Shown piece after piece: positions 1-42,546 of a DNA stretch of 42,546 nucleotides; position 1 is the stretch's first letter; every line of letters begins with the position of its first letter. The stretch is from a virus: positions 1 through 42,546 of the IMG/VR virus record IMGVR_UViG_3300050016_000064, one strand, 5' to 3'. A model generated the notes under the pieces. That model was not told the origin of the DNA. It saw nothing but the letters and a program-made list of their open reading frames with translations, and did not search any database. A program made the position numbers and the translations under genes.

Positions 1-198
1 AGCCCCCGCCGCATCCCACGCCGCATCCCCCGCCGCAGCCCCCGCCGCAGCCCGCGCCGCATCCCCCGCCGCATCCCCCGCCGCAGCCCCCGCCGCAGCC
101 CGCGCCGCAGCCCACGCCGCATCCCACGCCGCATCCCACGCCGCAGCCCGCGCCGCATCCCACGCCGCAGCCCCCGCCACATCCCGCGCCGCAGCCGC
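1..198. repeat. 12-bp tandem repeat array, left half of the terminal array
   Basis: About 16 head-to-tail units of the consensus GCCGCAKCCCVC (K = T/G, V = A/C/G) are visible. Variation is limited to position 7 (T or G) and position 11 (A, C or G). These changes swap Asp/Ala and Trp/Gly/Arg in the encoded protein on the minus strand. The array continues at 42382-42546, so the window boundary falls inside it. The G-rich strand has runs of three to five G with 7-nt spacers, a pattern compatible with G-quadruplexes. Confidence 0.95.
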
Positions 199-1078: not shown

Positions 1079-1103
1079 AAGTTTGACCTGTTCTTTCTAA
1101 ATC

Positions 1104-1438
1104 CCTTGCCATGGCATGCCTGCCGCGCCAGGCCATGCCGTGCCACGCCATTCCACGCCCAGCCAAGCCTCGCCTTGCCTGCCATGCCTCGCCTTTCCCA
1201 GCCACGCCTTGCCGTACCGAGCCTGGCCTGCCACGCCTCGCCCAGCCGCATCAAGCCCAGCCAAGCCCTGCCTCGCCCTGCCTGCCACGCCGAGACTCGC
1301 CCTGCCACGCCACGCCGAGCCCAGCCCTGCCAAGCCAGGCCTTGCCGTGCCCAGCCGAGCCATGCCTGCCGCGCCGCGCCGCGCCGTGCCTGGCCTAGCC
1401 ACGCCCCGCCCAGCCGCGCCGCGCCCAGCCACGCCTAG
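1104..1438. repeat. Pentanucleotide GCCNN tandem array (about 335 bp)
   Basis: Almost every fifth base begins GCC, with the two intervening bases free (GCCAT, GCCGT, GCCAC, GCCAA, GCCTC and so on). A few units have slipped by one base or mutated to TCC. It fills the gap between the stop of the gene at 1435-2088 and the start of the small membrane gene at 1078, the only large gap in an operon otherwise packed with 4-bp overlaps. Because 5 is not a multiple of 3 and the unit rarely makes stops, several frames on both strands stay open; these are artefacts of composition. On the leftward transcript it would be a GGCNN repeat. Confidence 0.9.
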
Positions 1439-2088
1439 CCTGCCTGGACCTCAAATAACCCGAATCCCATCCCGCAGGAATCTTTGGAATCGGGTCGGCC
1501 TTCCCCAACCCCCACTTGCATTCCAATTCGCGCAAAAAGATTTACGATGTCTTCAGCAGAAAACTGATCCGCGTCGAAGCGCACACGTACGGTGACCGAC
1601 CATGAGCGCCACATAGCACGGACTCGTATGTCAGCAACGCCGGTGCTGTTTCTTACTGGAGCTTCGTACTTTTCGGGTTTGCCTGAAATTTTGACGAGTG
1701 GTGTCCCATCTGTTTCATCGAAACCATCCGCGAGAATGAATATGGACAGCTTCGCCTTGGTCATTGCAAAGCCTACCGTGCGACATGCCGAGATTGCCGC
1801 GTTGCGAAACGCCGATGCCGGAATCCCTCCCCAGCCTTCTTCGGTTCGATACTGAGCGGCGATAAACTCCTGGTCATAGTTACGCACGGTGCGCTTTTTG
1901 CCCTTTTTCGCTTGATCGCCTTTTGCCATTTTTTCGCGCATCTCGTTGCGGGCTTTTTCACCGAAGCGGAGTTGCACGTATGGCGAAGTACAATTACATT
2001 TCAAACCGAGCACCTTAAAATTCGGAGCCTTGATGACCACTTGCTCAGGCAACGGCTGTTTCGCTGGCATGACTGCTGTTTGCGGCAT
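1435..2088 (-). CDS. Conserved phage protein with RAMP-like glycine-rich loop (217 aa)
   Basis: ATG at 2088 follows an excellent ribosome site (AGGAGG, 6 nt upstream). The product has a lysine-rich patch (KMAKGDQAKKGKKR, about residues 53-67). It then has a conserved-looking core (GIPASAFRNAAISACRTVGF, ATGVADIRVRAMW-type segment) and a C-terminal motif GVGEGRPDSKDSCGMGFG. That motif resembles the glycine-rich loop of Cas7/Cas6-type RAMP domains (GhG, spacer, GhG). I recall similar proteins in actinophages and other phages annotated as hypothetical. The gene overlaps the upstream gene's 3' end by 44 bp and shares the operon with an SSB-like protein and a Cas4/RecB-like nuclease. A nucleic-acid-binding role is an inference. 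Confidence 0.8.
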   Translation of the reverse strand: MPQTAVMPAKQPLPEQVVIKAPNFKVLGLKCNCTSPYVQLRFGEKARNEMREKMAKGDQAKKGKKRTVRNYDQEFIAAQYRTEEGWGGIPASAFRNAAISACRTVGFAMTKAKLSIFILADGFDETDGTPLVKISGKPEKYEAPVRNSTGVADIRVRAMWRSWSVTVRVRFDADQFSAEDIVNLFARIGMQVGVGEGRPDSKDSCGMGFGLFEVQAG

Positions 2089-2602
2089 CGTTTACCTCCT
2101 CTTTCTTAGTTGTAGAGAGCTTCTTTTCGGTGATTTGAATGCCTTTTTCGATCATCCGCGACAGAGAGGCGAGTTCTGGGACCCCTAGCCACCTAAAAAG
2201 CCATTGACGCAATTCGTTGATTGCTCGCTCGGCCGCTTCTGCGGAATGCTCTTCCCGAATTTCAAGCGCGGATTCATATCCACGCCCAGCATCGGTGCCC
2301 GCCTGAGTGATATTGACGAAGGCGCGTACTTCTTCTTCTGCTCCATCGCTGAGAATGATGATGTTAATAGATTGAACCAGACGCGTAGCTTCCTGGCGCC
2401 TGTACAACTCCGCCGCATGAGCATCGTCCCAATCAAAATATTTATGGAGCGGATTGCTCTTCGGCTTTGCGGTCTTTACGATGTCCTCGCTTTTAAGTAT
2501 TCCGTGTTTTTCCTTGATACTTTCCAACGCCTCGCCCACAATTTGGACATCGTCGTCCTTGACCACCGAATGAGTTTTCGAATTCACGTACTTTTTATTC
2601 AC
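2045..2602 (-). CDS. Conserved phage protein with 'PLHKYFDWDD' motif (185 aa)
   Basis: The start is GTG at 2602, 6 nt after GGGAGG. Residues 27-60 (ESIKEKHGILKSEDIVKTAK, then SNPLHKYFDWDDAHAAELYR) match a pattern I know from phage hypotheticals: an N-terminal helical domain followed by 'PLHxYFxWDD'. Residues 60-150 are helical and charged. The serine- and alanine-rich C-terminus is probably disordered. It is the second gene of the leftward operon, about 70 bp downstream of the zinc-ribbon gene, and overlaps the next gene. The role is unknown; the early position suggests DNA metabolism or host takeover. Confidence 0.8.
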   Translation of the reverse strand: MNKKYVNSKTHSVVKDDDVQIVGEALESIKEKHGILKSEDIVKTAKPKSNPLHKYFDWDDAHAAELYRRQEATRLVQSINIIILSDGAEEEVRAFVNITQAGTDAGRGYESALEIREEHSAEAAERAINELRQWLFRWLGVPELASLSRMIEKGIQITEKKLSTTKKEEVNDAANSSHASETAVA

Positions 2603-2892: not shown

Positions 2893-3124
2893 ACCGCCGC
2901 CGCATCCCCCGCCGCATCCCCCGCCGCAGCCCCCGCCGCATCCCCCGCCGCATCCCCGCGTTACTCTCAGGCACAGCCGGCGCCGCATCCCACGCCGCAT
3001 CCCACGCCGCATCCCACGCCGCATCCCACGCCGCATCCCACGCCGCAGCCCACGCCGCATCCCACGCCGCATCCCCCGCCGCATCCCACGCCGCATCCCC
3101 GCGTTACTCTCAGGCACAGCCGGC
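2893..3124. repeat. Second 12-bp GCCGCAKCCCMC array, intergenic, with a duplicated 24-bp spacer
   Basis: It contains about 5 units (2896-2957), a 24-bp spacer GCGTTACTCTCAGG... (2958-2981), about 10 more units, and the same spacer again at 3101-3124. It uses the same unit and orientation as the terminal array but is not in a usable frame. In the alanine frame it meets a TAA in the spacer, and the two blocks are out of phase with each other. It therefore looks like a non-coding copy or scar of the repeat. It sits directly upstream of the leftward early promoter. Confidence 0.9.
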
Positions 3125-42311: not shown

Positions 42312-42546
42312 GCGGCAATCATCCTTTCCACAAGTTCAAGGGCAGACTGCTGGAGTTTTGCAACTGTCGGAGCGAGTTTTTCCCCCGCCGCAGCCCACGC
42401 CGCAGCCCCCGCCGCAGTCCGCTCCGCATCCCGCGCCGCATCCCGCGCCGCAGCCCACGCCGCAGCCCCCGCCGCAGCCCCCGCCGCAGCCCCCGCCGCA
42501 TCCCCCGCCGCAGCCCCCGCCGCATCCCACGCCGCATCCCACGCCG
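42308..42546 (-). CDS. Alanine-rich tetrapeptide-repeat phage protein, C-terminal part (continues from base 1)
   Basis: In the frame AAWDAAWDAAGA the right-hand array reads as alanine-rich repeats and then leaves the repeat through GEKLAPTVAKLQQSALELVE to a TGA at 42310-42308. The segment is 79 codons plus two bases. The left half of the gene ends exactly on a codon boundary at base 1. Exactly one missing base (or 1 plus a multiple of 12) is therefore needed to fuse both halves in frame and in repeat phase. The non-repeat C-terminus looks like a normal amphipathic helix, which supports this frame over the arginine-glycine and cysteine-glycine readings of the same array. The stop overlaps the ATG of the next small gene at 42311. 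Confidence 0.8.
   Translation of the reverse strand, partial: AWDAAWDAAGAAAGDAAGAAAGAAAGAAAWAAARDAARDAERTAAGAAAWAAAGEKLAPTVAKLQQSALELVERMIAA
42382..42546. repeat. 12-bp tandem repeat array, right half of the terminal array
   Basis: This has the same GCCGCAKCCCVC unit as bases 1-198, with about 13 further copies and one diverged unit (GTCCGCTC at about 42417). It abuts the unique C-terminal coding sequence of the alanine-repeat gene. The total copy number across the junction cannot be read, because a break inside such a repeat usually reflects an assembly limit. Confidence 0.95.

What the first reader, a model, noticed from the sequence alone, without database searches (positions are those of the whole stretch)
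1104..1438. A roughly 335-bp GCCNN pentanucleotide array with free fourth and fifth bases
The spacing of GCC every 5 bases is kept while the other two bases vary freely. This is not simple slippage, which would copy the whole unit. Something selects the GCC periodicity, or an unusual mutation process produces it. It is the only large gap in a tightly overlapped operon. Its transcript would be GGCNN repeated about 65 times. I know no named element of this kind.
Basis: seen in the sequence. Interest (0 to 1): 0.65.

Follow-up and report, generated by a model that had tools for sequence, protein, structure and literature searches.

The report
Phage VIPR guide-RNA array
The strange GCCNN repeat is a phage-encoded array of RNA guides of the newly described VIPR system, a relative of CRISPR in which two variable letters of every five spell out the DNA target, and the two VIPR protein genes lie right next to it.

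Summary
Window 1108-1444 holds 62 GCC triplets, 50 of the steps exactly 5 nt, with near-random NN. Read on the minus strand, in the direction of the operon, it is GGCNN RNA. It is not a gene, not slippage and not a lone DNA repeat. It is a VIPR array (Viral Interference Programmable Repeat, bioRxiv 2026, PMC13142463). The gene just upstream (1435-2088-) is a Vipr/RAMP protein: its family profile hits the solved SUSP1 Vipr chain at E 1e-32, and its AlphaFold model matches Csm3/Cas7 subunits. The next gene (2045-2602-) is a near-constant partner, probably the accessory (vap) gene. Homologues of either gene, fetched without regard to repeats, carry sense-strand arrays in 42/80 and 50/80 loci, never antisense. 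Beyond the paper's main text: arrays of this type are punctuated by a 4-nt GGCA step every ~49 nt. The window is thereby cut into five guides of 14, 16, 10, 9 and 11 units, within the published 9-16. In cluster-F mycobacteriophages these segments are gained or lost whole. The published 1-nt-skip rule gets modest independent support for the class; no target was found for the window's own guides. New member of a known, very recent kind.

The parts
1108..1444 (-). vrRNA array: GGC(NN) pentamers, divided by GGCA tetramers
1371..1440 (-). guide segment 1, 14 units: TA GT TG GC GC TG GG GT TA CA AC GC GC GC
   Evidence: boundary role of GGCA inferred
1287..1366 (-). guide segment 2, 16 units: AT TC TG AC AA CT TT AG TG TC GT GT AG GA TC GT
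1233..1282 (-). guide segment 3, 10 units: AG GA AG TT TG TT GC TG GA GT
1184..1228 (-). guide segment 4, 9 units: CA TC AC AA GT TG AA GA AT
1125..1179 (-). guide segment 5, 11 units: AA GA TT TG GT AT GT AC AT CT GC
1104..1144 (-). 3' end of the array, possible tail hairpin (weak: z -1.8)
1435..2088 (-). vipr gene (F1, phrog_4652): RAMP-fold Vipr protein, 217 aa; its stop codon TAG lies inside the first array unit
   Evidence: profile to PDB 36pp_D SUSP1 Vipr E 1.1e-32; AF2 pLDDT 93; Foldseek/VIA-align to Csm3/Cas7 subunits, Z up to 11.9
2045..2602 (-). probable vipr-accessory gene (F2, phrog_15946), 185 aa, no detectable homology to SUSP1 vap1
   Evidence: co-occurs with vipr in 79/80, 74/80 and 6/6 loci; hhalign to SUSP1 vap1 probability 0.3%; no PDB fold match at E <= 0.001
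1097..1432 (-). open frame of 111 aa over the array (GxAxx repeat); judged spurious

Best explanation
It is the guide-RNA array of a phage-encoded VIPR system. The early operon is transcribed leftward through vap (2045-2602), vipr (1435-2088) and the array, giving RNA of GGC/NN pentamers. Vipr, a small RAMP related to Cas7/Csm3, is expected to coat this RNA as one subunit per pentamer, holding each GGC and presenting each NN. Consecutive NN pairs then recognise double-stranded DNA with one skipped base between pairs (NNxNNx...), and the bound complex silences genes of competing phages or prophages. In this system the array probably encodes five guides of 14, 16, 10, 9 and 11 units, punctuated by the tetramer GGCA. 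Shown here: the array, its constraint, its strand and place, its linkage to vipr and F2, the RAMP fold, the GGCA punctuation. Taken from the preprint: RNA binding, the skip rule, repression. Inferred: one subunit per pentamer, that each GGCA-bounded segment is one guide, and that F2 is the vap.
For: Profile of the F1 family hits SUSP1 Vipr (PDB 36pp_D) at E 1.1e-32; the SUSP1 Vipr protein scores E 9e-38 against the F1 profile when searched alone. AF2 model of the window's protein (pLDDT 93) matches CRISPR Csm3/Cas7-type subunits in nearly all top rows. PMC13142463 describes exactly this pairing: Vipr plus vrRNAs of alternating GGY/NN, 9-16 repeats, mostly phage-borne. Loci fetched by protein only: arrays on the sense strand in 42/80 (F2) and 50/80 (F1), 0 antisense, 1 in the reversed controls of the F2 set; six of six named-phage loci found by tblastn carry arrays. 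Of 62 IMG/VR loci with high-entropy arrays, 51 hold vipr. First GGC lies -17 to +7 nt from the stop of a co-directional gene in about 32 arrays. GGCA steps: 452 of 516 four-nt steps, spacing peaked at 49 nt; 108/129 arrays with F1+F2 against 13/97 with F1 only. Cluster-F phages gain or lose whole GGCA-bounded segments. Skip-1 matching of 427 segments to 2.4 Mb of phage DNA: 69 good hits against 51 +/- 7.5 in 22 shuffles and 36/51/45 for skips 0/2/3.
Against: No target was found for the window's guides: scans of IMG/VR with three of the five gave only chance-level matches. The skip-rule signal on my data is modest, and the striking part of the first test was one guide (L332) hitting conserved vipr codons in many phages. 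The window's 3' tail hairpin is weak. No expression data. About 40% of homologous loci lack a strong GGC array, though many of these have a degenerate or other-core period-5 array. The system is known from one preprint, whose supplement I could not read.
Confidence: 0.95

Rival explanations
1. The array is a protein-coding gene: GGCNN reads as a GxAxx repeat in any frame, and the minus-strand ORF 1097-1432 is open.
For: One minus-strand frame is open over the array; annotators have called hypothetical proteins over such arrays in Gordonia and Mycobacterium phages.
Against: Only TAG can stop such a repeat, so open frames are expected: 69 arrays observed, 70.5 expected. Several arrays have stops in all six frames. 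ORF calls differ among near-identical phages.
Confidence: 0.02
2. A pentanucleotide microsatellite that expanded by slippage and then decayed.
For: Period 5; perfect (GGCTC)n-type arrays are common in bacterial genomes.
Against: Adjacent units are no more alike than chance while GGC is kept; arrays are tied to two gene families, to one strand and to a site just after a stop codon; GGCA punctuation at ~49 nt.
Confidence: 0.01
3. An RNA sponge or regulatory binding array, like the TRAP target (GAGNN)11, with Vipr acting only as an RNA-binding protein on its own message and NN as idle spacers.
For: Fixed triplet and free dinucleotide with period 5; the array sits next to the gene of its likely binding protein.
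Against: NN strings are kept in cluster-F phages (a 9-unit string shared by all 16 loci though flanks differ); published target recognition by NN (PMC13142463); skip-1 excess; NN composition follows codon positions 1-2 best of six phases, r 0.50.
Confidence: 0.02

Closest known systems
VIPR system of Escherichia phage SUSP1 (type II; Vipr, vap1, four vrRNAs; PMC13142463)
   Same: Homologous Vipr protein, phage-borne minimal locus, RNA of GGY/NN pentamers flanking vipr.
   Different: SUSP1 has GGT-rich separate vrRNAs, each with a structured 3' tail (paper; sequence seen); the window has one long GGC array punctuated by GGCA and another accessory protein.
VIPR staggered arrays with overlapping vrRNAs (named in PMC13142463, fig. 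S18)
   Same: Possibly the same architecture: one long array holding several guides.
Class 1 CRISPR-Cas (Csm3/Cas7 RAMP on crRNA)
   Same: RAMP fold; guide RNA laid along protein subunits; periodic unpaired positions.
   Different: No near-identical direct repeats with unique spacers; the guide letters are spread two per pentamer.
TRAP RNA target, (G/U)AGNN x 11 (from memory, not tested)
   Same: Fixed triplet with a two-base spacer, period 5.
   Different: Short regulatory site; the spacer letters carry no target information.

Membership tests
VIPR system | Vipr protein (single-RRM RAMP with G-loop) | tested here: met
   E 1.1e-32 to PDB 36pp_D; AF2 pLDDT 93; Csm3/Cas7-type matches with Z up to 11.9 (134 residues, 3.3 A)
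VIPR system | RNA region of alternating GGY/NN with hypervariable NN | tested here: met
   62 GGC, 50 steps of 5, NN entropy 3.6 bits
VIPR system | 9-16 repeats per vrRNA | tested here: met
   segments between GGCA: 14, 16, 10, 9, 11 units; depends on GGCA being the boundary
VIPR system | vipr-accessory (vap) gene beside vipr | tested here: inconclusive
   F2 is a constant partner, but its identity with one of vap1-6 could not be checked; no homology to SUSP1 vap1 was detected
VIPR system | Structured invariant 3' tail | tested here: inconclusive
   weak hairpin in the window (z -1.8); a conserved hairpin ends the cluster-F arrays
VIPR system | Phage, prophage or mobile-element location | tested here: met
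   IMG/VR record; terminase large subunit, major head protein, exonuclease
VIPR system | NN target with 1-nt skip | tested here: inconclusive
   class-level excess z 2.3-2.8; none for the window's guides
VIPR system | vrRNA transcribed and bound by Vipr; DNA-directed repression | not testable with these tools
   needs sRNA-seq, pull-down and reporter assays
CRISPR array | near-identical direct repeats separated by unique spacers | tested here: not met
   tandem repeat search gives only degenerate, mostly 5-nt-based periods in the array
Protein-coding repeat gene | one conserved open frame | tested here: not met
   no frame preference in the class; inconsistent ORFs among close relatives

The most novel reading that the evidence does not exclude
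VIPR systems with the F2 partner store their guides as cassettes in one continuous array with a punctuation mark: each GGCA-to-GGCA segment of about 9 pentamers is one guide, and cassettes are gained and lost whole, as spacers are in CRISPR. This would mean that a guide-turnover process exists without Cas1. The main text of the preprint does not describe this; its fig. S18, which I could not read, may.
Probability: 0.45. Interest if true: 0.72.

Novelty: new member of a known kind. Interest (0 to 1): 0.55.

Why it matters
VIPR was reported only in April 2026 as a phage-borne, RNA-guided, noncontiguous DNA code proposed to predate CRISPR. This locus was found from raw sequence with no knowledge of it, which is independent support for the repeat as a real element. 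The wider set adds that arrays are common in IMG/VR, strictly sense-oriented beside vipr, often placed right after a stop codon, and punctuated by GGCA in one sub-type. It also brings well-known laboratory phages (cluster-F mycobacteriophages, Gordonia phages) into reach as test systems, and offers a way to read individual guides, and so targets, directly from sequence.

Tried and rejected
Rfam (0 hits), tRNA search (0), PADLOC (0), Pfam and NCBIfam for F1 (only scattered weak chance matches). No PDB fold match for F2 at E <= 0.001. Ideas dropped: coding repeat (frame test), microsatellite (no copying of NN), A-specific mutagenesis as in diversity-generating retroelements (the single A of GGCA is not randomised), G-quadruplex (would not need the C). 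Bacterial genome scan for 12 perfect units returned mostly low-entropy microsatellites, a different class. Target searches for window segments 1, 2 and 5 and for a conserved mycobacteriophage guide gave chance-level hits. L442 matches 10 of 11 units of segment 5, but roughly 0.2 such hits are expected by chance by my own estimate, so it is not claimed. First skip-rule count (30 against 2-8) was downgraded because one guide caused most of it.

Full report
OBSERVATION. The repeat is real. Between 1104 and 1440 there are 62 GCC triplets against 21 expected, with steps 50 x 5, 6 x 10 and 5 x 4 nt; lag-5 self-match is 0.65; the chain score of 104 compares with at most 11.5 in 500 dinucleotide shuffles; it is the strongest period-5 stretch of the window. 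The two other bases are near random and neighbouring units are not copies of each other. On the minus strand, which is the coding strand of this operon, it reads GGCNN.

NOT A GENE, NOT SLIPPAGE. Most of the strong arrays there share the same traits: high NN entropy and, where 4-nt steps occur, nearly always GGCA. A scan of bacterial genomes found instead mostly low-entropy microsatellites such as (GGCTC)n. In 87 high-entropy arrays open frames are as frequent as after shuffling the units (69 against 70.5). The first GGC lies within -17 to +7 nt of the stop codon of a co-directional gene in about 32 arrays, and the next gene often starts 26-110 nt after the array.

THE NEIGHBOUR GENES. Clustering of flanking proteins gave two recurrent families: F1 (window 1435-2088-, phrog_4652) and F2 (window 2045-2602-, phrog_15946). 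Homologues were then fetched by protein alone. Sense arrays lie in 42 of 80 F2 loci and 50 of 80 F1 loci, none antisense. Many of the rest hold degenerate arrays or arrays with other cores: GGT, GGA, GTT, GTA, AGC. tblastn found F1 in cluster-F mycobacteriophages, Gordonia phages and Cyanophage Cy-LDV1, and all six regions first fetched have arrays. F1 and F2 occur together in 79/80, 74/80 and 6/6 loci, and 51 of 62 IMG/VR loci with high-entropy arrays have F1.

IDENTITY. The F1 profile hits one solved chain with significance: SUSP1 Vipr, PDB 36pp_D, E 1.1e-32. The AF2 model of the window's F1 (pLDDT 93) matches Csm3 and other Cas7-type RAMPs. The preprint PMC13142463 (main text read in full, supplement not readable) describes VIPR: a Vipr RAMP, an accessory gene and vrRNAs of alternating GGY/NN, 9-16 repeats with a 3' tail, recognising DNA through NN pairs with one skipped base, used against competing phages. 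The window fits: vipr, a constant partner gene, and the array, in a phage early operon with exonuclease and replication genes. I cannot say which of the seven types it is; no homology of F2 to SUSP1 vap1 was detected.

GRAMMAR OF THE ARRAY. In 187 non-redundant arrays 516 four-nt steps were found, 452 of them GGCA, with spacing sharply peaked at 49 nt (nine pentamers and one tetramer), almost always 4 modulo 5. In the GGT-core array of L290 the tetramer is still GGCA (sequence). The feature goes with the F2 partner: 108 of 129 arrays, against 13 of 97 with F1 alone. In the window GGCA steps begin at 1444, 1370, 1286, 1232, 1183 and 1124, giving segments of 14, 16, 10, 9 and 11 units. In 16 closely related mycobacteriophages arrays differ mainly by whole GGCA-bounded segments: ByChance lacks exactly one that James has, Donkeykong has two more than Brocalys; a 9-unit NN string survives nearly unchanged in all, even where its flanks differ; and the arrays end in one conserved hairpin. 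That each segment is one guide is my inference.

TARGETING. Of six codon phases, NN composition correlates best with codon positions 1-2 on the sense strand (r 0.50, 16 points, others at most 0.15), as expected if the skipped base is the wobble base. A direct test with 427 segments against 2.4 Mb of phage DNA gave 69 good skip-1 matches against 51 +/- 7.5 in 22 shuffles and 36, 51 and 45 for skips 0, 2 and 3; strict matches 8 against 3.9 +/- 1.5. This is modest support. The clearest case is an 8-unit segment of L332 ending at GGCA that matches, wobble-aligned and 16 of 16, the conserved vipr codons E-D-M-V-R-V-G-M of other phages, in line with the published remark that vrRNAs can target other VIPR systems. 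For the window's own guides no convincing target was found.

VERDICT. This is a new member of a known kind, with an array punctuation that the main text of the preprint does not mention.

Noticed in passing
window 1-196, 2897-3100 and 42382-42546: Twelve-bp arrays (GCCGCATCCCAC and variants) that read AAWDAAGDAA... on the minus strand; the first is the C-terminal part of an ORF starting near 639. Both window ends lie in such an array, so the record may be a circular genome broken in a repeat. The copy at 2897-3100 is interrupted by a repeated CCGCGTTACTCTCAGGCACAGCCGGCGCCG and may be displaced.
   Followed up: partly
L290, L273 (GGT), L320 (GGA), L293 (GTT), L267/L271 (GT, GTA), L301 (AGC): Arrays beside F1/F2 homologues with other cores; the AT-richest loci carry the T-rich cores.
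   Followed up: partly
L027, L037, L097, L102, L111 (12-nt steps); L026, L081 (11-nt steps); L014, L032, L105 (9-nt steps): Arrays without GGCA have other regularly recurring odd steps, perhaps other punctuation marks of other VIPR types.
   Followed up: no
L175, 892-1716- and 3762-4355- (Alphaproteobacteria MAG): Two vipr-family genes within 4 kb of one bacterial contig, with a high-entropy array.
   Followed up: no
L041 1282-1755 and L107 3450-3638 (minus-strand coordinates): High-entropy GGCNN arrays that start right after a gene of a ParB-like partition protein family.
   Followed up: no
L047, L089, L103, L113: A third family beside arrays (phrog_5926 in the two members scanned) that by eye resembles SUSP1 vap1.
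   Followed up: partly
Mycobacterium phages Donkeykong gp48, LastJedi gp43, Florinda 59, BobaPhett gp51; Gordonia phages Pipp gp43, UmaThurman gp40: Annotated hypothetical proteins lie over the arrays, and the calls differ between near-identical mycobacteriophages; probably spurious gene calls.
   Followed up: yes
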